Below are positions 29,683-44,347 of a stretch of 45,026 nt of DNA, piece after piece (position 1 is the stretch's first letter; the number at the start of each line of letters is the position of its first letter). Origin of the DNA: Verrucomicrobiales bacterium (GTDB lineage Bacteria; Verrucomicrobiota; Verrucomicrobiia; Limisphaerales; UBA9464). The notes beneath the pieces were generated by a model, which did not search any database, was not told the DNA's origin, and saw only the letters and a program-made list of their open reading frames with translations. The stretch covers positions 1 through 45,026 of the forward strand of contig JAIXUV010000368.1 in the NCBI GenBank assembly GCA_027483345.1, in the 5' to 3' direction. Made by a program: the position numbers and the translations under genes.

Positions 29683-29768
29683 TGGTGCCGGTGGAGGGAC
29701 TCGAACCCCCACTCCCTTGCGGGAAACAGATTTTGAGTCTATCGCGTCTGCCATTTCGCCACACCGGC
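29683..29768 (-). tRNA. tRNA-Leu, anticodon CAA
   Basis: On the minus strand the 7-bp acceptor stem GCCGGTG pairs with CACCGGC, followed by discriminator A and an encoded CCA (29683-29685). The T arm contains GGTTCGAGTCC. The anticodon loop reads CTCAAAA, giving anticodon CAA, which reads UUG leucine. A long variable arm with the stem CCCGCAAGGGA identifies a class II tRNA. Length is 86 bases including CCA. It is a single-gene unit with its own terminator. Confidence 0.96.
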
Positions 29769-35438: not shown

Positions 35439-35460
35439 TTTAATCGTCATTTAAGGTCAT
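35439..35460 (+). promoter_or_regulatory. Direct-repeat box upstream of the response regulator (PmrA/QseB-like)
   Basis: Two copies, TTTAATCGTCA and TTTAAGGTCAT, stand in tandem with exactly 11 bases between their TTAA cores (35440 and 35451). The layout hexamer-N5-hexamer matches the (C/T)TTAA(G/T) boxes of PmrA/BasR and QseB-type OmpR-family regulators. The box ends 20 bases before ATG 35481, and GATAAC (35465-35470) could be the -10. Autoregulation is inferred. Confidence 0.6.
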
Positions 35461-35480
35461 CCCGGATAACTTGCCCCGCG

Positions 35481-36161
35481 ATGCGGATCCTCGTGGTCGA
35501 AGACGAACCAAAGGTCGCGCGGTTCCTGGAGCGCGGCCTCCGTCAGCAGGCGCATGCCGTGGACCTCGCGTTCGACGGAGAGGATGGGCTGCGCTTGGCC
35601 TTCGAGAACGACTACGACGTGGTGGTCCTCGACGTCATGCTTCCGGGGAGGGACGGCTTCTCGGTCCTCACGGAACTCCGCACCGCACAAAAGGCGGTCC
35701 GCGTGCTCATGCTCACCGCCCGCGACGAGGTCGGCGACCGGGTCCGGGGCTTGGATCTCGGGGCCGACGACTACCTCGTCAAACCGTTCGACTTCGACGA
35801 GTTCCTCGCGCGTATCCGGGCTCTCATCCGTCGCGCGGCCTCCGAGGGACAAACCACCCTGCGTTGTGCGGATCTGGAGCTGGACACCAGGACGCGGCAG
35901 GTACGGCGTGGCGGAAAACCGGTTCAGCTTACGGCGAAACCCTTCGCGATACTCGACCTGCTCTTGCGCCGCCAGGGACAGGTCGTCAGCCGCACGGAGA
36001 TTTCGGAACACGTCTGGGACCAGCGCTTCGATCCCTTGGGCAACGTCATCGACGTCACCGTCCACCAACTCCGTGACAAGGTGGACAAGGGATTCGAACC
36101 CCGCCTGATCCACACCGTCCGCGGGGTCGGCTACGTGCTGCGAGCCGGGGAACAGGCATGA
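35481..36161 (+). CDS. OmpR/PhoB-family DNA-binding response regulator
   Basis: The start at ATG 35481 gives 226 residues; the frame upstream runs over the promoter box. The receiver domain (1-115) has the acidic pair Glu7/Asp8 (VVEDEPKV), phospho-acceptor Asp51 (VVLDVMLPGRDGF), Thr79 (LMLTARD) and Lys101 (LVKPF). The winged-helix Trans_reg_C domain follows (about 128-222): RRGGKPVQLTAKPFAILDLL, the recognition helix DVTVHQLRDKVD and the wing IHTVRGVGYVLR. It is closest in pattern to the CusR/QseB/PmrA group. The kinase gene overlaps its stop (ATGA), forming a coupled pair. It probably binds the TTAA-type direct repeats at 35439-35460 and 37680-37722. Confidence 0.93.
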   Translation: MRILVVEDEPKVARFLERGLRQQAHAVDLAFDGEDGLRLAFENDYDVVVLDVMLPGRDGFSVLTELRTAQKAVRVLMLTARDEVGDRVRGLDLGADDYLVKPFDFDEFLARIRALIRRAASEGQTTLRCADLELDTRTRQVRRGGKPVQLTAKPFAILDLLLRRQGQVVSRTEISEHVWDQRFDPLGNVIDVTVHQLRDKVDKGFEPRLIHTVRGVGYVLRAGEQA

Positions 36162-37684
36162 GACGCACCTCCGTGATCTGGTGGTTCCTGGGGGCGGCTG
36201 CCGTCGCCCTGATCGCCATCAGCCGGTCCCAGCTCGACCTCGCCAACCGTCGCGACCGCGACCACGCCGAATTGATCCTCAAACTCTCGGCCCGGACACT
36301 CGCCGGCCAAGTCGATCCGCGGAAGCCCGCCTACGACGCGGGATTCGTTGCCCCTTCCGGGGGGCACTTCGGACGACCGGTGGTCCTGCTCTACGATCTC
36401 GCCGGTCGCGAGGCCGGCCGCGCCGCAGGCTCGGATCCCGTGCTTCCCTTGAACGCCTCGGCGGCCCGCCTCGTGCCCGCCGGTCTCCTTCGCCCGAAGT
36501 CGGGCGAGACCCCGTTGGCACCGGCCCCGCCCGCCACCTCCGAGCTCGCCGAGGAACCAGGCCCCAGCAGTCTCGACCACGCGACGGATGTCCTCGGAAG
36601 CGCATGGCTCTCGGAGATGAAGGGAACCGACGGCAGAGACTGGCTCGTCGCCACCGCGCCGGTCCGCTTCCGGGACCCTTCTGGGCGGCTGAACCTCGTC
36701 AGCGCCTGGATCCAAGCCGCCCTTCCCCTGGACGAAATCCTCCGGGCTTCGCGCGAACGCACGGTCCGCTTCCTTGTCTTCTGGGCGGCCGCCGGTTCCC
36801 TGACGCTCCTCGCCGCTTTGTGGTCCGTCCGCGGACGCGTTTCGTTGGCGGCGGTCGCCGACGCGGCCGACCGCATGCAGACCGCGAAACTCTCCTCCAC
36901 CCGCCTCCCTGAGACCGTGGACGATCCGGAGGCCCTGCGTCTTGTCCGGGCCTGCAACCGCCTGATCGACCGCGTCGCCGAGATCCATGCCGGGCAGCAG
37001 CGATTCGTCGCCGACGCCGCCCACGAACTCCGCACGCCTTTGACCATCCTGCGCGGTGAAATCCAGGTGGCCCTGCGCGAACCGGGGAACCATCCGCTCC
37101 TGATCGACACCCTCAAGAGCAACCTCGACGAGTCGCTCCATCTCAGTCGGCTCATCGACAGCCTTCTGACCCTCGCGCGTGCCGATGCCGGCACAGGCCT
37201 CGGGAAACGCGAGCAAGTCGATCCCGCGGATCCCATCCGCCGCGTTCTCGAACGTCTAGGGCCGATCGCTGGTGAACGCGGCGTCACCCTGAAATTCACC
37301 GGCGACGACGAGGGAACGCGCCCGGCTCTATTCGCCGACCCTGCCGCCCTCGAGAGGATCCTCTTCAACCTCACGGAGAACGCGGTGAAACACTCTCCGG
37401 CGGGAAACCCGGTCGAGGTCATCCTTTCGGTCGAAGCCGGCGAGGTGCGGTTCCAGGTCGTCGACCGCGGCGTCGGCATCGCGCCCGAACACCTTCCGAG
37501 AATCTTCGATCGATTCTACCGCATCGATGCCGCGCGCCGCCGGATGGACGGCGGAGCCGGCCTGGGCCTAGCCATCGTGAAGACGCTCGTCGAGGCGCAC
37601 GGGGGATCCGTTTCCGTCGAGAGCGAGGTCGGTACCGGCAGCCGCTTCACGATCGTACTGCCCCGGAGTACGCGGGACCCTTAA
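36158..37684 (+). CDS. Membrane sensor histidine kinase paired with the OmpR-type regulator
   Basis: The 508-residue kinase has TM1 (about 6-22), a periplasmic sensor region of about 180 residues with no recognised fold, TM2 (about 204-224, FLVFWAAAGSLTLLAALWSV), and a HAMP-like linker. The HisKA domain has phospho-acceptor His289 in FVADAAHELRTPLTILRGEI. The HATPase domain (about 376-505) has NLTENAVKHSPAG, VVDRGVGIAPEHLPRIF, RFYRI and GGAGLGLAIVKTLVEAHGGS. All catalytic boxes are intact. The start overlaps the regulator stop, so they are made together. Its own stop codon lies inside the first unit of the repeat array 37680-37722. The signal sensed is unknown; there is no obvious metal-binding motif in the sensor region. 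Confidence 0.93.
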   Translation: MRRTSVIWWFLGAAAVALIAISRSQLDLANRRDRDHAELILKLSARTLAGQVDPRKPAYDAGFVAPSGGHFGRPVVLLYDLAGREAGRAAGSDPVLPLNASAARLVPAGLLRPKSGETPLAPAPPATSELAEEPGPSSLDHATDVLGSAWLSEMKGTDGRDWLVATAPVRFRDPSGRLNLVSAWIQAALPLDEILRASRERTVRFLVFWAAAGSLTLLAALWSVRGRVSLAAVADAADRMQTAKLSSTRLPETVDDPEALRLVRACNRLIDRVAEIHAGQQRFVADAAHELRTPLTILRGEIQVALREPGNHPLLIDTLKSNLDESLHLSRLIDSLLTLARADAGTGLGKREQVDPADPIRRVLERLGPIAGERGVTLKFTGDDEGTRPALFADPAALERILFNLTENAVKHSPAGNPVEVILSVEAGEVRFQVVDRGVGIAPEHLPRIFDRFYRIDAARRRMDGGAGLGLAIVKTLVEAHGGSVSVESEVGTGSRFTIVLPRSTRDP

Positions 37685-37722
37685 ACCGATTTAAGGTTCG
37701 GTTAACCGGCGTTTAAGGCCGG
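37680..37722 (+). promoter_or_regulatory. Four-unit TTAA direct-repeat array upstream of the giant secreted protein
   Basis: CTTAAACCGA, TTTAAGGTTCG, GTTAACCGGCG and TTTAAGGCCGG follow each other, with TTAA cores at 37681, 37691, 37702 and 37713, that is 10, 11 and 11 bases apart. Two units share TTTAAGG with the box at 35450. The array starts at the kinase stop codon and lies about 107 bases before ATG 37829. An embedded 6-bp inverted repeat (AACCGA/TCGGTT, 37684-37703) could also form a hairpin, but no T run follows. Confidence 0.6.
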
Positions 37723-37828
37723 AAATGGGAGGCTCTTCGCACCGAGTCCGGGGACGCCTCAGACCGACGCCGCCTAAACGACCTGGCGGCATCCCGATTC
37801 AGGGCGGAGACCGGATCGGGACGTCGCT

Positions 37829-40800
37829 ATGAGACTCCTTCCCCTCCGCACCACCGTCGCCGTCCACCTCACCCTGACCGCCGTCGCGGGAATCTGCGCC
37901 GCCGCGATCGCGCACAATCCGGTGCACCAGGATGCGGCCTCGGACGGCTCGTCGCTGGACGGGACCCGGGTGGAACGCCCGTCCGAGGCCGCCCGCACTG
38001 GCAAGCCCCAACCGGACGTCGCGCCGAAGGTAGGAACGGCTCCTGCGCCCTTCTCGATCCGGCCGATCGACCCGATCTTCGGCCGCGAGTTCGTCCAGAT
38101 CACACAGGACATCGGCCTGGTCGAACCGCCGGCCCCGGGGCGGACGGTGGTCTTCTCGGCCAGCGGACTGCCGCCGGCGGCGACCTTCTCGTCGGACACG
38201 GCGCAGTTCTCCTGGTTGCCGGGCGAATTGGACGGAGATACGAGCCACACGATCACGGTCACCGCGATCGACAACGGCATCCCGCCACAGACCAACTCGA
38301 CGACGTTCGACATCCATGTCGCGGAGGCGAACCGGCTGCCGGTCGTCGCACCGGTCGCCACCCTGGGCGTCGAGCTGGGGCAGACTCTGGAGCATTCCAT
38401 CCTCGCGACCGATGAAGACCAGCCGCCACAGTCCATCGGCTTCCGGTTGCTGAGCGGGCCGGCGGGCCTGGACATCTCCCCGACCGGGATCATCACATGG
38501 ACGCCCACGGCGTCGCAGACCGACGAACTCTACTCGGCGTCGGCCGGAGTCGGCGACGGCGTCGGCGAGATCGTCGTGCCGTTCAGCGTCTACGCGCGTT
38601 CTCAGCCCCAACCGCCGCAGGCGCCGCCGCCAATCTCCACGGTGCATTTGGGGCAACGGTTGGCCCTCGCGTGGACCAACCTTCCAGGAAGCTTCGCGGT
38701 CCAGGCCTCGACCAACCTCCTCACTCCGGTCTGGCGCACGCTCCAGGCGCACACCGCGTTGACCAACGGGCTTCGACTCCTGGCCCTCGACACCACGAAC
38801 GCCACCGAGTTCTTCCGGTTGAAGAACCTCGATGGCATCCGCCTCACGGCTGCGACGCCCCGGAACAGCCGGCTGTCGCCGGGAACCCAACTGTTCGTTG
38901 AACTCGGCTTGTCCGGCGGCCTCGCCAACGACGACCTCGTCGAGATCATCGAGCGCGGCGCGTTCTCCGAGGTGATCCGCCGGATTCCCGCCTCGCTGCT
39001 TGAGGACGTGGACGGCTCGGTCGGCTTCTTCCTGGACGGCGATTCCCTCCCCGTCTCCCTCGCCACGATCGGCGTCCGCCTCGTCGATTCCTCGGGAGCC
39101 TCCCGCGGCCTGTTCGCGTTCGATGTATCCAACGCCGCCGCCGTCCCCGCCGGAGCGGCGCCTTCGGTCCTGTCGCTGGCATGGGCCGGTCCCACCGGGC
39201 AGGTCCGCCGCCCGTCCGACACCAATTCCTCGGCCACGCCCGCCCTGGCGGTGACCGTGTCCGATCCCGACGGCGATCTCATCCGGCTGGGCGTGAGGAT
39301 CACCGCACCGGATCGGCAGACCCATTCATGGGAAAGCCCCGTCTCGAATCTCGGGACCGGTCCGACCAACCTCTTCCTCTATCCCACCGAGTTTGGTCCC
39401 GGGAGCGTTCCGGGATTCTGGGAAGCCGAGGTCACCGCGATCGACTCCTCGGGCCGTGCTTCGGCACCGGTGAAATCGGAACTGTTTCTCTCCGCGTCCC
39501 CGTTTTCCGAAGCCGCGGAGGCCCCGCGGATCGACTCTTTCTCGCCGCAGCGCGGACCCGCCGGCGCGATCGTGGAGATCCTCACCCGGAACGTTCCGAC
39601 GGCCGATCTCTCCAACGCAGTCGTCCGCATCGGCGGCCGCATCGCCATGGCGGCGGAAGTGTCCTCGAACGTGTTCCGCGCCGTCGTCCCGACGGACACC
39701 GACGGAGGCTTCATCGAACTGCGGACGCCGCAGGGCCGGACACGCACCCCGACGCGGTTCACGGTGTTGCCCGACGCCGGGATCGAACCCGCGGTGGCGC
39801 ACCTGCTGGCAGGTCAATCCATGCGCTTCGGCATCGACCGCCGGCTCCCGGCCGGTTCCGAGGTGACGTGGTCGCTTGTCGGTCCCGGCATCCTCTCGAC
39901 CAACGGGCTGTTCACGGCTCCAGCCAACCGTCAACTCCGGACCAACGCCACCATACGCGCCACGATCTCCATTGCCGGTACCAACCTCCTTGCCGAAGCC
40001 CATGCCGACATCGACCCGGCTCCGTTGAACCGGGGCGCCGCGACCGTCTCCGCCGTCCTCGGCGGGGTGGTCTGGTCCGACGATGCGCTGGCCCGGATCG
40101 AGATCCCCGCCGGGGCGCTCCCGACGAACAGCACGATCTCCGTCCGCCGTCCGATGCTCGCCGAGATGCCCGCCGCGCCGCGGAACACCTCGCTCGTCGG
40201 CGCCATCGAGTTCGGCCCCTCGGGCACGGTCTTCTTAGAACCGGCGACGGTCCTCGTCCCGCTCGACCGCTCGCTGGCGCCCGGGACGGCCCTGTCGCTG
40301 CGAGTCTGGAATCCGCAATCCGGACAGTGGGTGGACGAGGGCGTCGTCGCCGCGGTCGAGCCCGACGGACAACACGCCCGCGCGCTTGTCCGACACTTCA
40401 CCCTCTTCGGCCTCTTCGGCGACCCCTGTGCGGTCGGCGCGATTCCGGTCCTGGGTTCGATCACGCCCGCCAGCATCCTCGAGGGCGAAGAACGCCCGAT
40501 CCTGGTCGAGGGAAGCGGCCTTGATGGCGACGTTTCGTTCGATTTGGTCAACGCCGACGGTTCTCCGCTCGAAGGGCTCGGCCATGGACCGTTCGTCCGG
40601 GCCCGCCTCTCGCCCTTCGCCGAGGACGGGACACGCGCGGCCTTCATGCTGGATTGTCCGGTGCTGCCAGGACTTTCGGCGGGTTCCACGAGGACGATGA
40701 TGGTCCGGGTAAGGCGGTGCGGCGGGCCCATCGCGAGCCTTCCGCTCACCATCGTGGGCCTGGATGAATTCGACGCCGCACACCACAGGGCCGGATTTCC

Positions 40801-43800
40801 CGGGGAACGGACGACCAACCTCTATTCCGAGATCGTCGTGGACCGGGACCTGTTGGGAATCCGCAGCGACGTCGTGGATCTTCACGCGACGCGACGCGTG
40901 GTCATCTCCTCCCGTGTGGACCTCTCGGGCAGGAGGGGAATGGACGCGGACCGGCATGATCCGGGCGTCGCATTCGGGGGCGACACCCGCCAAGGCGTGA
41001 ATGGCGGGCGCAACGGCCCGGGAGCCGACGCAGTCTTCTCCGCGGTGTACGACCTGCCCGGGAACCGGCTGCGGTTCGGCTTCGGCGGGACGCGCGGGGC
41101 GGATCTCAACAGCATCTCCGAGCTGTCCGAAAGGATCGGATGCGTGGGCGGGGATGCACTGGAATGCTTCGAGGAATTGATCGCGGAACTGGTGAACGAC
41201 CCGTTCGACCGATTCGAGGAAGCACGCCCGAACTTCGAGAGGCTCCTCGCCTCCATTCCGGACGGACGCCGGGGCCATCCCGGACTCTGGCACGGCGCCC
41301 CGGGAGCTTGGTACACGCTCCGGACCAGCGGTGTGGTCAGCTCCAACCCGGGGTTCCGGAGGACCTTCGGGCCGGGCTCGGGCGGCGGCGGCGGCGGCGC
41401 CTCGGGCCGGATTCTGGGATCCTTCACCTCCACCCTCGGAGGCGGAGCCGGCGGCGAAGGCGGGGGTGCGATCCGCTTCCTCTCAGCCCGTGACCTGGTC
41501 TTCACAGGATCCATCCGGGCCAACGGCGGTGACGGCGGAGCGGGAAGCGCGGACAGGTTCGGCTTCTCGGGCGGCGGAGGGGGCGGCGGGGGCGGCGGCG
41601 CGGTCCGACTTGTCGCAGGCAGGAACGTGACCACGTCGCCCACGGCCACCATCGAGACCCGCGGAGGATTCTCCGGTCGGGGCGGATTCGCCACGTTTGT
41701 CCGCAGCATCGGATTCGGGCTGATGATCGAGATGCCCTACGCGGAACCGACGGAGCCGGCCTCAGGCATGGCAGTCATGGAAGGCTCGCCCTTCCCCGAG
41801 GAGCAGTTCGGCAACCGGGTCACCGCCAGCAACGTCCTCTCCGTCCTCACCCGGCGCGATCCGGACCTCTTCCTGCGCGATCCCGCCGGCAACGTCGGCC
41901 TCAACCCGGACCGTCCCTACGTCGTCGTCCGCCGGGCCGACGGATCGGCTTCGCGGCGCTGCTACCTCCACACCGCCGGCGAGCGGTTCCGGGTGAACCT
42001 CGTTCTCTTCCCGGGCGCCAACGTCGTCGAGATCGGTGATCCGGGGGAGGAACTCCGCCATCGCCACATCGTCTGCCTGAGCGGCATCGACACCGACGGC
42101 GACGGCCTGTCCAACCAGGACGAACTGGCCCTCGGCTCGGACCCCAACTCGGCGGACACCGACGGCGACGGCCTGGCCGACATCGACGAGGTGGCCACGG
42201 GAACCTCGCTCACAAGCGCGGACACGGACGGCGATCTCCTTCCCGACGTGGACGAAGCCCGGATCGGCAGTCTTGCAACCGATCCGGACACGGATGGTGA
42301 TGGGCTGTGGGACAGCCTCGAGCACTACCTCGGCCGGTCACCGGTGCTGGGCGACCGCAGTGATTTCCAATACGCCGAGGGCGACATCTTCACGGTGGTC
42401 ACGAACCAGCTGGGCGAACGGCTTCTCGCCCTGCTGGATCCGTTTTCTGGACGGCTGGGAGCCATCGGCCGCCTTCCCGGCAACCGGGGCGACGGCATCA
42501 CCTTCGACCATCGCGGGACCCTCTACCTCGCCCAGGGGTCGGAAATGTTCGAATGGGCGGGATCGGTCCCGGCGGAACGGCCCGACCTTCCCAACCGCGG
42601 CGGAGGATGGAGACTCCTTGCGGCTTCGTCCGGCTCGTCCCCCGGGAGTTCGGGCGGCAGCATTGTCGGCCTCGGTGCCGCGGTCGGCGGCAGTTCCCCG
42701 CCGGTGCCGGGTCGGATCCGGGACATGAGAAACATCGTTTCGAACGACGGGTTTCTCGTGTTCTCCAAACTGGGGGACATCCGATCGCAGAACGCCCTCG
42801 GGGGGTTCACCCTGCCCATAGCGGCCGGGCCGTTGACCTTCGACCGGTCTCCAAACGGATTCCGGCGAATCCATGGAGTCGCCACCGCGGGAGGAATCAA
42901 CGGTAACACCTTCCACCTGGCGGGCGACAACCGGATCGAGACCAACTTCGTTCCCGCGTTCGTTCCCGGAAACGGCGTAGGCCAACCGGTCAAGGCCCTC
43001 GCCTTCGGGCATCCCACGGGCTACTTCGCGCTGCTGGGTTCCGCCGGCGACGACGTGGTGCAGCAGATCAGACCCTTCGCCAGCGGAACCATCGGACTGG
43101 CCTTCCCGCTCGGCCGTGCGGACGGACTCGCGATGCTGCACCTGAACACCAACGACTTCATCGCCACCACGGCGACGAAGGAAGTCCTCCGCATCACGCT
43201 GGATGCGGCGCAGGCGACGATGACGGTCACGCCCCTGTCCTCGACGGTCGCGCCCTGCCATCTCCTGGCGCGTGTGCCGTGCGTGGACGGCTGCTTCAAC
43301 CCGAACCGGGTCTCCTCCGCCGGACCGCTCGGTCCGACTTTCACGACGGCCGGAATCCGCAACGGCGACTTCAACGGGGACGGCGTCCAGGACCTCGTGG
43401 TCGTCGGCGTTTCCACGAACACGGCGCGCGTCAACATCCTCCACGGCGACGGCACGGGGCGGTTCACCAACGCCATCGACCACGTCCTCGGGCCCGGCTC
43501 GATCGGTTCCTCCGGCAAGGTGGAACTGGCACGGGTCGATGCCGACAACCGTGACGACCTTGTCGTCTCTTGGACGACCGCCACCGGGTCCGGCCGCATC
43601 TCCGTCCTGCCCGGGACGGCCGACGGCCGGTTCGCGCCGCCGGGTCCGCCACTCGTCACGGGGAACACCTCGGACTTCGCCGCGGGGGCCTTCAACGGCT
43701 CCGCGACGGACGACCTGGTCTTGGCCGGCAACAACGTCACGCTGGTCCCGGGAACCGCCGTCGGGACCTTCGACCTCGCCTCCGCGCAGCCGTTGCTGCC

Positions 43801-44347
43801 CGCCAACCGCGCCAATCTCCACGTGGCCCTCGGCGACATTGACGGCGACGGCGTGAACGACCTGGTCCGCGTCGGGCAGTCGATCGCGACCCACCTCGGT
43901 GGCGCCACGACGGCAGGCTGGCAATCGGTCTCCGGATTCGGCGGCGGCGACGTGCTCGAGTTCGGCGACTGGGAAGGAAACGGCACGCGGGACCTGTTCT
44001 TCAGCGGTTACAGCGGATTCGTGACGGTGGTTCCCGGCAACGGGAACGGGACGTTCGCCCCCGCGGTCAGCGTCTACTCCGGGCAGCTCTACGGGAGCTC
44101 TCCCAAGTTCGCCGTCGGTGACCTCGACCTGGACGGCCGCAGCGATGTGGTCATGCCCGATCCCCTGCGGCCGCGCGCCCTGGTCCTGACGACGGTCCGC
44201 CCCGCCGCGGGCTTCGGGGTGCTGACGGAGCTCCCCCTCGGGCTCATCCCGGTCGCCGCCCGCATCTTCGACACGAACGGCGACGGCATACCGGACGTGG
44301 CCCTGATCTCAAACGCGGGCGTCATCGAAGTCGTGTTGGGCCGCTGA
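37829..44347 (+). CDS. Giant secreted multidomain protein (Ig/IPT/ZU5-like/Gly-rich/TSP3/FG-GAP)
   Basis: The 2172-residue protein begins with a probable signal peptide (VAVHLTLTAVAGICAAAIA). In order: two cadherin- or Ig-like domains (about 70-260), a verrucomicrobial ASTNLLTPVWRTL...FFRLKN module (about 275-335), Ig-like units to about 560, an IPT/TIG domain (about 564-648, PRIDSFSPQRGPAGAIVEIL), a ZU5-like strand set (about 750-835), and a second IPT-like start near 880. A Gly-rich stretch follows (about 1185-1265, with runs of six and ten glycines) and thrombospondin-3/calcium repeats DTDGDGL (about 1421-1501). A variable propeller-like part and an FG-GAP/VCBS propeller (about 1844-2170, GDFNGDGVQDLVVVG, VALGDIDGDGVNDLV) end it. 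No C-terminal sorting signal (PEP-CTERM, Por) is seen. It is likely a calcium-stabilised surface or matrix protein; the upstream TTAA array suggests control by the adjacent two-component system. Confidence 0.85.
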   Translation: MRLLPLRTTVAVHLTLTAVAGICAAAIAHNPVHQDAASDGSSLDGTRVERPSEAARTGKPQPDVAPKVGTAPAPFSIRPIDPIFGREFVQITQDIGLVEPPAPGRTVVFSASGLPPAATFSSDTAQFSWLPGELDGDTSHTITVTAIDNGIPPQTNSTTFDIHVAEANRLPVVAPVATLGVELGQTLEHSILATDEDQPPQSIGFRLLSGPAGLDISPTGIITWTPTASQTDELYSASAGVGDGVGEIVVPFSVYARSQPQPPQAPPPISTVHLGQRLALAWTNLPGSFAVQASTNLLTPVWRTLQAHTALTNGLRLLALDTTNATEFFRLKNLDGIRLTAATPRNSRLSPGTQLFVELGLSGGLANDDLVEIIERGAFSEVIRRIPASLLEDVDGSVGFFLDGDSLPVSLATIGVRLVDSSGASRGLFAFDVSNAAAVPAGAAPSVLSLAWAGPTGQVRRPSDTNSSATPALAVTVSDPDGDLIRLGVRITAPDRQTHSWESPVSNLGTGPTNLFLYPTEFGPGSVPGFWEAEVTAIDSSGRASAPVKSELFLSASPFSEAAEAPRIDSFSPQRGPAGAIVEILTRNVPTADLSNAVVRIGGRIAMAAEVSSNVFRAVVPTDTDGGFIELRTPQGRTRTPTRFTVLPDAGIEPAVAHLLAGQSMRFGIDRRLPAGSEVTWSLVGPGILSTNGLFTAPANRQLRTNATIRATISIAGTNLLAEAHADIDPAPLNRGAATVSAVLGGVVWSDDALARIEIPAGALPTNSTISVRRPMLAEMPAAPRNTSLVGAIEFGPSGTVFLEPATVLVPLDRSLAPGTALSLRVWNPQSGQWVDEGVVAAVEPDGQHARALVRHFTLFGLFGDPCAVGAIPVLGSITPASILEGEERPILVEGSGLDGDVSFDLVNADGSPLEGLGHGPFVRARLSPFAEDGTRAAFMLDCPVLPGLSAGSTRTMMVRVRRCGGPIASLPLTIVGLDEFDAAHHRAGFPGERTTNLYSEIVVDRDLLGIRSDVVDLHATRRVVISSRVDLSGRRGMDADRHDPGVAFGGDTRQGVNGGRNGPGADAVFSAVYDLPGNRLRFGFGGTRGADLNSISELSERIGCVGGDALECFEELIAELVNDPFDRFEEARPNFERLLASIPDGRRGHPGLWHGAPGAWYTLRTSGVVSSNPGFRRTFGPGSGGGGGGASGRILGSFTSTLGGGAGGEGGGAIRFLSARDLVFTGSIRANGGDGGAGSADRFGFSGGGGGGGGGGAVRLVAGRNVTTSPTATIETRGGFSGRGGFATFVRSIGFGLMIEMPYAEPTEPASGMAVMEGSPFPEEQFGNRVTASNVLSVLTRRDPDLFLRDPAGNVGLNPDRPYVVVRRADGSASRRCYLHTAGERFRVNLVLFPGANVVEIGDPGEELRHRHIVCLSGIDTDGDGLSNQDELALGSDPNSADTDGDGLADIDEVATGTSLTSADTDGDLLPDVDEARIGSLATDPDTDGDGLWDSLEHYLGRSPVLGDRSDFQYAEGDIFTVVTNQLGERLLALLDPFSGRLGAIGRLPGNRGDGITFDHRGTLYLAQGSEMFEWAGSVPAERPDLPNRGGGWRLLAASSGSSPGSSGGSIVGLGAAVGGSSPPVPGRIRDMRNIVSNDGFLVFSKLGDIRSQNALGGFTLPIAAGPLTFDRSPNGFRRIHGVATAGGINGNTFHLAGDNRIETNFVPAFVPGNGVGQPVKALAFGHPTGYFALLGSAGDDVVQQIRPFASGTIGLAFPLGRADGLAMLHLNTNDFIATTATKEVLRITLDAAQATMTVTPLSSTVAPCHLLARVPCVDGCFNPNRVSSAGPLGPTFTTAGIRNGDFNGDGVQDLVVVGVSTNTARVNILHGDGTGRFTNAIDHVLGPGSIGSSGKVELARVDADNRDDLVVSWTTATGSGRISVLPGTADGRFAPPGPPLVTGNTSDFAAGAFNGSATDDLVLAGNNVTLVPGTAVGTFDLASAQPLLPANRANLHVALGDIDGDGVNDLVRVGQSIATHLGGATTAGWQSVSGFGGGDVLEFGDWEGNGTRDLFFSGYSGFVTVVPGNGNGTFAPAVSVYSGQLYGSSPKFAVGDLDLDGRSDVVMPDPLRPRALVLTTVRPAAGFGVLTELPLGLIPVAARIFDTNGDGIPDVALISNAGVIEVVLGR

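What the first reader, a model, noticed from the sequence alone, without database searches (positions are those of the whole stretch)
35439..37722. Matching 11-bp TTAA direct repeats link a two-component system to the giant secreted-protein gene
Seen: TTTAA-type units in tandem at 35439-35460 (two units) and 37680-37722 (four units), with cores 10-11 bases apart, in a genome where TTAA is rare. Two units share TTTAAGG. Known: PmrA/BasR- and QseB-type OmpR regulators bind (C/T)TTAA(G/T)-N5 repeats. Inference: the regulator at 35481 controls its own gene and the 2172-residue protein, making sensor, regulator and surface protein one module.
Basis: partly seen in the sequence, partly recalled or inferred. 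Interest (0 to 1): 0.65.

Follow-up and report, generated by a model that had tools for sequence, protein, structure and literature searches.

The report
TTAA operators of a two-component system
In a Verrucomicrobiota bacterium, evenly spaced TTAA repeats mark where a signalling regulator probably binds DNA to switch on its own gene (well supported by relatives) and probably the gene next door for a giant secreted protein (less certain), a small signal-to-surface module built with a known type of switch.

Summary
Six of the nine TTAA words in the 45-kb window fall in the two arrays. TTAA-N7-TTAA occurs at 8 places in the 5.08-Mb genome, three of them here, including the only three-unit run. 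In 53 non-redundant promoters of related regulators from the same order, TTAA pairs pile up only at 11- and 22-bp spacing, and a -10 hexamer (TAnnnT) tends to follow 10-11 bp after the last unit. This is a PmrA/BqsR-type direct-repeat operator in PhoB-class position. The regulator's own promoter (TTTAAT-CGTCA-TTTAAG-N11-TAACTT-N8-ATG) fits fully and is a conserved island in two close relatives, so autoregulation is well supported. In relatives such boxes precede genes for secreted proteins, often beside the kinase-regulator pair.

Control of the giant gene is plausible but weaker. Its array has three in-register units plus one off by 1 bp on the kinase stop codon, lacks TAnnnT (only a degenerate TGGGAGGCT stands at the right distance), and is seen only in three near-identical genomes. 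The terminator reading is disfavoured. The QseB comparison is wrong; PmrA and BqsR are right. The regulator belongs to the heavy-metal (CopR/CusR) subfamily. New member of a known kind.

The parts
35439..35455 (+). Operator of the regulator's own promoter: TTTAAT-CGTCA-TTTAAG, two direct units 11 bp apart
   Evidence: Sequence; 24 invariant columns TGGATTTAATCGTCATTTAAGGTC in G000/G004/G013 while about a third of the columns just upstream vary; spacing class recurs in the order
35467..35472 (+). Predicted -10 hexamer TAACTT, 11 bp after the operator and 8 bp before the ATG (near-leaderless transcript predicted)
   Evidence: 2-D scan of spacing and offset in relatives; only genome match of TTAA-N7-TTAA-N11/12-TAnnnT; TAnnnT occurs at 0.0005 per base in the window
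35481..36161 (+). OmpR/PhoB-family response regulator, heavy-metal (CopR/SilR/CzcR) subfamily
   Evidence: PF00072 and PF00486; TIGR01387 282.2 bits, cut-off 279.2; nearest DNA-binding-domain structure PcoR 2jzy
36158..37684 (+). Sensor histidine kinase, start overlapping the regulator stop by 4 bp
   Evidence: HisKA, HATPase_c; TIGR01386 229.8 bits, below its cut-off of 292.55
37680..37717 (+). Four-unit TTAA array CTTAAA-CCGA-TTTAAG-GTTCG-GTTAAC-CGGCG-TTTAAG; units 2-4 in 11-bp register, unit 1 off by 1 bp and on the kinase stop codon
   Evidence: TTAA cores of all four units invariant in G004 and G013
37726..37734 (+). Candidate degenerate extended -10 TGGGAGGCT, hexamer GAGGCT 11 bp after the last unit
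   Evidence: The only nAnnnT between the array and the giant ORF; speculative
37740..37828 (+). Possible structured 5' leader of the giant gene (hairpins GCCGCC/GGCGGC and CCCGAT/ATCGGG)
   Evidence: Energy z -2.6 for the 144-bp intergenic region and for the last 58 nt, -1.5 for the 89-nt leader alone; weak
37829..44347 (+). 2172-residue predicted secreted protein: N-terminal signal-like sequence, He_PIG, TIG, TSP3_bac, FG-GAP_3 repeats
   Evidence: Pfam, sequence; in-frame stop at 37775 places the array outside the ORF

Best explanation
The arrays are operators of the regulator at 35481. When the kinase at 36158 phosphorylates it (inferred), regulator dimers bind head-to-tail TTAA units 11 bp apart, on one face of the helix. 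Upstream of its own gene the two-unit operator ends 11 bp before a -10 hexamer and takes the place of a -35 element, so the regulator activates its own near-leaderless promoter (geometry shown by comparison, binding and activation inferred). Between the kinase and the giant gene, three in-register units (plus one off-register unit) form a multi-dimer operator that probably drives an extra promoter for the giant secreted protein, starting near 37741 with a leader of about 88 nt (inferred, weaker). The result is a signal-to-secreted-protein module with positive feedback.
For: Array statistics. Spacing histogram in 53 non-redundant regulator promoters of the order: 11 bp in 8 loci, 22 bp in 5, 10 and 23 bp in 2 each, every other spacing 0-1; no peak in 75 promoters, mostly from other phyla. 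Spacing-by-offset scan with TTMA units: (11 bp, +11) 5 loci, (11, +10) 4, (22, +10) 3, mean cell 0.05; 9 of 53 promoters carry the full element, block shuffles 0.02. Conservation island at the regulator box. The full element has one match in the own genome, the regulator promoter. The three other regulator paralogues inspected in this genome lack TTMA pairs upstream. In relatives the same boxes, most of them within about 20 bp of a start codon, precede genes for secreted YHYH, multicopper oxidase, cytochrome, EF-hand and dioxygenase proteins, five boxes in 16 kb around one regulator in L266. Published parallels: PmrA consensus (PMC10729948); BqsR TTAAG-N6-TTAAG activator with a four-unit promoter (PMC4682146).
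Against: No binding or expression data. The giant promoter has no TAnnnT; GAGGCT is degenerate. Unit 1 is at 10 bp, a spacing that abolishes BqsR activity (PMC4682146), and unit 3 (GTTAAC) departs from the PmrA consensus. The kinase-giant intergenic region differs at 5 of 144 sites between G000 and G004, little less than fourfold sites (6-7%), so its conservation is not informative. Only three near-identical genomes carry the TCS next to the giant gene. Two deep regulator clades use the motif, so another regulator could in principle bind these sites.
Confidence: 0.66

Rival explanations
1. Only the upstream array is an activating operator; the downstream array acts on the TCS operon itself (repression, road-block or feedback near the kinase end), and the giant gene is transcribed by read-through or from an unrelated promoter.
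For: No TAnnnT after the downstream array and a 112-bp distance to the ATG, unlike the mostly near-leaderless targets in relatives; unit 1 lies on the kinase stop codon; giant homologues in G034/G028 have no TCS beside them in the stretches fetched.
Against: The array lies immediately upstream of the giant gene and reads in its direction; in relatives boxes lie upstream of, and point at, neighbouring secreted-protein genes; a four-repeat activating promoter exists for BqsR (PMC4682146).
Confidence: 0.2
2. The downstream array is a transcript-end hairpin (terminator) of the kinase gene, and its TTAA repeats are a by-product of palindromes such as CCTTAAA-CCGA-TTTAAGG.
For: The 47-nt array folds at -16.7 kcal/mol, z -2.2, as two hairpins; the two substitutions among relatives in the first hairpin can be kept as G-U pairs.
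Against: No T-run follows and the terminator scan found nothing there; the 81-nt context is not unusual, z 0.14; a hairpin explains neither the 11-bp register nor the matching box before the regulator and before related regulators.
Confidence: 0.06
3. The boxes belong to a different OmpR-family regulator of the genome (cross-regulation), not to the product of the adjacent gene.
For: A second deep clade of regulators uses the same motif class; two further conserved TTAA pairs lie elsewhere in this genome (C152, C195).
Against: The other regulator paralogues of this genome that were inspected (C318, C398, C5) have no such box of their own; the box is found with its adjacent regulator across families.
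Confidence: 0.08

Closest known systems
BqsR/CarR of Pseudomonas aeruginosa, operator TTAAG-N6-TTAAG (PMC4682146)
   Same: TTAA-core direct repeats at 11-bp period; activator; multi-unit arrays including a four-unit promoter; box in the regulator's own (bqs) promoter
   Different: The window's pairs each carry at least one mismatch (TTAAT or TTAAC); unit 1 is out of register; here the -10 lies 10-11 bp after the box; the regulator is of the CopR subfamily; signal unknown (BqsR: Fe(II))
PmrA/BasR box (C/T)TTAA(G/T)-N5-(C/T)TTAA(G/T) (PMC10729948)
   Same: The regulator box matches the consensus exactly (TTTAAT-N5-TTTAAG)
   Different: The regulator scores far below the PmrA equivalog cut-off (193 vs 330); unit 3 of the giant array is GTTAAC; phylum Verrucomicrobiota
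CopR/CusR/CzcR heavy-metal two-component systems (TIGR01387/TIGR01386)
   Same: Regulator above the TIGR01387 cut-off; nearest DNA-binding-domain structure PcoR; a related system in G042 is followed by a CusB/HlyD-type gene
   Different: Kinase below the TIGR01386 cut-off; TTAA direct repeats rather than the CusR-type palindrome (recalled from memory); neighbour is a giant secreted protein, not an efflux pump
CarSR-RadD of Fusobacterium nucleatum (PMC12186487)
   Same: A two-component system that directly controls a surface adhesin
   Different: radD is repressed; 17-bp AT-rich motif; no homology of the adhesin claimed
CtrA TTAA-N7-TTAA sites (from memory)
   Same: Identical core and spacing
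   Different: Regulator 179 bits against a CtrA cut-off of 350; different phylum and role

Membership tests
OmpR/PhoB-family response regulator | Receiver domain plus C-terminal winged helix | tested here: met
   PF00072 1.1e-28, PF00486 2.4e-25
Heavy-metal response regulator (TIGR01387) | Score above curated cut-off | tested here: met
   282.2 vs 279.2 bits
Heavy-metal sensor kinase (TIGR01386) | Score above curated cut-off | tested here: not met
   229.8 vs 292.55 bits
PmrA (NF007928) | Score above curated cut-off | tested here: not met
   193.2 vs 330 bits
PmrA-type operator (regulator promoter) | (C/T)TTAA(G/T)-N5-(C/T)TTAA(G/T) | tested here: met
   35439-35455 TTTAAT-CGTCA-TTTAAG
PmrA-type operator (giant array) | (C/T)TTAA(G/T)-N5-(C/T)TTAA(G/T) | tested here: not met
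   Unit 3 is GTTAAC; units 2 and 4 fit but are 22 bp apart; unit 1 CTTAAA is 10 bp from unit 2
BqsR-type operator | TTAAG pentamers at exactly 11-bp period | tested here: inconclusive
   Period met for 35440/35451 and 37691/37702/37713; each pair has one pentamer mismatch; 37681/37691 is 10 bp
QseB site (PMC10729948) | G(C/T)(G/A)ACAAT(A/T)A-N4-TT | tested here: not met
   By inspection the arrays do not read so; consensus
PhoB-class activated promoter (regulator gene) | Direct-repeat box about 10 bp upstream of a -10, replacing the -35 | tested here: met
   Box, 11 bp, TAACTT; the PhoB geometry itself is recalled from memory
PhoB-class activated promoter (giant gene) | Direct-repeat box about 10 bp upstream of a -10 | tested here: inconclusive
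   No TAnnnT; degenerate TGGGAGGCT at 11 bp
Operator bound by the adjacent regulator | Phosphorylation-dependent binding | not testable with these tools
   Needs footprinting or gel shift
Intrinsic terminator | GC-rich stem followed by a T-run | tested here: not met
   No such site at 37676-37760

The most novel reading that the evidence does not exclude
This order of Verrucomicrobiota uses a PmrA/BqsR-like TTAA operator with a fixed short distance to a -10 and often near-leaderless starts as a general code for TCS-controlled secreted proteins (YHYH, multicopper oxidases, cytochromes, EF-hand proteins), and the window's system has recruited a giant TSP3/FG-GAP protein into it.
Probability: 0.4. 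Interest if true: 0.55.

Novelty: new member of a known kind. Interest (0 to 1): 0.42.

Why it matters
A short, checkable motif with a fixed distance to the -10 would let regulons of two-component systems be read directly from genomes of a phylum in which I found no described example in the papers searched, and would tie one giant secreted protein of unknown role to a specific sensor kinase. It would also extend an operator type described in proteobacteria to Verrucomicrobiota and to CopR-subfamily regulators.

Tried and rejected
Terminator/hairpin for the downstream array: no T-run, context fold ordinary. Exact TTTAAG-N4..6-TTTAAG search: no match, too strict. Conservation of the kinase-giant intergenic region as proof of function: divergence too low to tell (5 of 144 against 6-7% at fourfold sites). 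Giant homologues at 46% identity in G034/G028 as an independent promoter test: the homologous part lies inside longer ORFs, no TCS found in the stretches fetched, promoter not comparable. Motif peak in regulators from other phyla: none in the mixed sample. G009 triple array: AT-rich sequence, likely chance; G053 four-fold CGGCAGTTTAA: a tandem repeat without a related TCS in the fetched 8 kb. Relaxing TTAA to TTMA was done after inspection; the scan over all spacings and offsets serves as the control.

Full report
What is there. The window (67% GC) carries a response regulator (35481-36161), a histidine kinase (36158-37684) and a 2172-residue predicted secreted protein (37829-44347) in one direction. 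The regulator has the OmpR/PhoB domains and passes the cut-off of the heavy-metal regulator subfamily TIGR01387; the kinase does not pass TIGR01386. The host belongs to Verrucomicrobiota: RpoB of its close relative G004, which is 99.8-100% identical to the host's two RpoB fragments, is 69-72% identical to three named Verrucomicrobia and 48-55% to Nitrospira, Paraburkholderia, Bacteroidetes, Omnitrophota and Acidobacteria; a fourth, short Verrucomicrobia fragment gave 55%.

The arrays. Two TTAA units 11 bp apart precede the regulator and four (steps 10, 11, 11) lie between kinase and giant gene. Six of the nine TTAA of the window are in them. TTAA-N7-TTAA occurs at 8 places in the genome, three of them here, and the three-unit run occurs only here. 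TTAA as such is not depleted for this composition. The first downstream unit contains the kinase stop codon and is 1 bp out of register.

Footprint in close relatives. G004 and G013 carry the same TCS (94-96% kinase identity) and both arrays. Before the regulator, 24 columns around the box are invariant while about a third of the columns just upstream vary. The kinase-giant region is nearly identical throughout and so says little.

Footprint across the order. I took promoters of related regulators from genomes of the genus, family and order, chosen by kinase similarity. In 53 non-redundant promoters TTAA pairs occur at 11 bp in 8, at 22 bp in 5, at 10 and 23 bp in 2 each, and at no other spacing between 5 and 35 bp in more than one. 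The 22-bp cases have a degenerate middle unit, for example TTTAAT-N5-GTTCAG-N5-TTTAAC. Scanning all spacings against all distances to a TAnnnT hexamer gives peaks only at 11 bp/+11 (5 loci), 11/+10 (4), 22/+10 (3) and 11/+21 (3, as expected for a third unit); the mean cell is 0.05, and 9 of 53 promoters against 0.02 in block shuffles carry the whole element. In 75 regulators, mostly from other phyla, there is no peak. A tree puts the boxes in two deep clades of the regulators.

Targets in relatives. A search of the 59 genomes for TTAA-N7-TTAA-N11/12-TAnnnT gives one match in the own genome, the regulator promoter. Over all genomes the reversed control has at least as many matches as the pattern, so single matches in AT-rich genomes mean nothing; but a recurring form CTTAAT-N5-CTTAAGGTT stands out, often 6-20 bp before a start codon of a predicted secreted protein: YHYH proteins (PF14240), a multicopper oxidase, PSCyt1-like cytochromes, a di-haem peroxidase-like protein, EF-hand proteins, a dioxygenase (the last assignments partly by eye from the sequences). 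In G051 five boxes lie within about 16 kb around one regulator and precede the regulator, a dioxygenase-like protein, a cytochrome, a YHYH protein and a multicopper oxidase (L266); in G042 two boxes precede secreted-protein genes next to a regulator (L267). So a TCS with TTAA boxes at neighbouring secreted-protein genes is a recurring arrangement, and the window's giant gene would be one more case.

How it probably works. The regulator box ends 11 bp before TAACTT, which ends 8 bp before the ATG: a PhoB-class geometry in which the repeat takes the place of the -35, with a near-leaderless transcript (geometry shown, function inferred). For the giant gene, units 2-4 are in 11-bp register; the only nAnnnT hexamer between the array and the ORF, GAGGCT with TG before it, lies exactly 11 bp after the last unit. 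That is a testable but weak candidate. BqsR gives a direct precedent: TTAAG-N6-TTAAG, inactive at spacers of 5 or 7 bp, with arrays of up to five units and a four-unit promoter whose last two units matter most (PMC4682146). By that rule unit 1 should contribute little.

Rivals. A terminator is disfavoured. That the downstream array serves the TCS rather than the giant gene cannot be excluded. Binding by another regulator is less likely because the three other close paralogues inspected in this genome lack such boxes.

Literature. I found no description of such operators in Verrucomicrobiota in the searches made, which cover only part of the literature.

Noticed in passing
L099:3683-3740 (own genome C152:33714) and L104, L105: A conserved TTAA pair (ATTAAGGTGGGATTAAG) between a small ORF plus a MauG/MbnP di-haem gene and, in the relatives, a DUF2809 gene; identical in three species, possibly a target of a related regulator.
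   Followed up: partly
L100:3851-3866 (own genome C195:13350) and L106: A second conserved TTAA pair (ATTAAGGCCGGGTTAAG) about 100 bp upstream of a 463-residue protein without Pfam match; its flanks resemble those of the C152 site.
   Followed up: partly
L266:2311-18535: G051 cluster with five TTAA-box promoters before regulator, dioxygenase, cytochrome, YHYH and multicopper oxidase genes: a compact candidate regulon.
   Followed up: partly
L060:250-286: Four tandem TTTAACGGCAG repeats (11-bp period) in G053 without a related TCS in the fetched 8 kb.
   Followed up: no
window 37740-37828: Two inverted repeats just upstream of the giant ORF; the differences among three genomes in this part lie outside the stems GCCGCC/GGCGGC and CCCGAT/ATCGGG.
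   Followed up: partly
L102:2225-3478: An AT-richer stretch of the own genome (53% GC) with a SMODS/DncV-like nucleotidyltransferase gene, possibly an anti-phage island.
   Followed up: no
L095, L096, L097: Homologues of the giant protein (about 46% identity) in another genus lie in longer ORFs with a different N-terminal part; no TCS in the fetched flanks.
   Followed up: partly
window 29686-29768: tRNA gene on the minus strand, the only Rfam match in the window.
   Followed up: no
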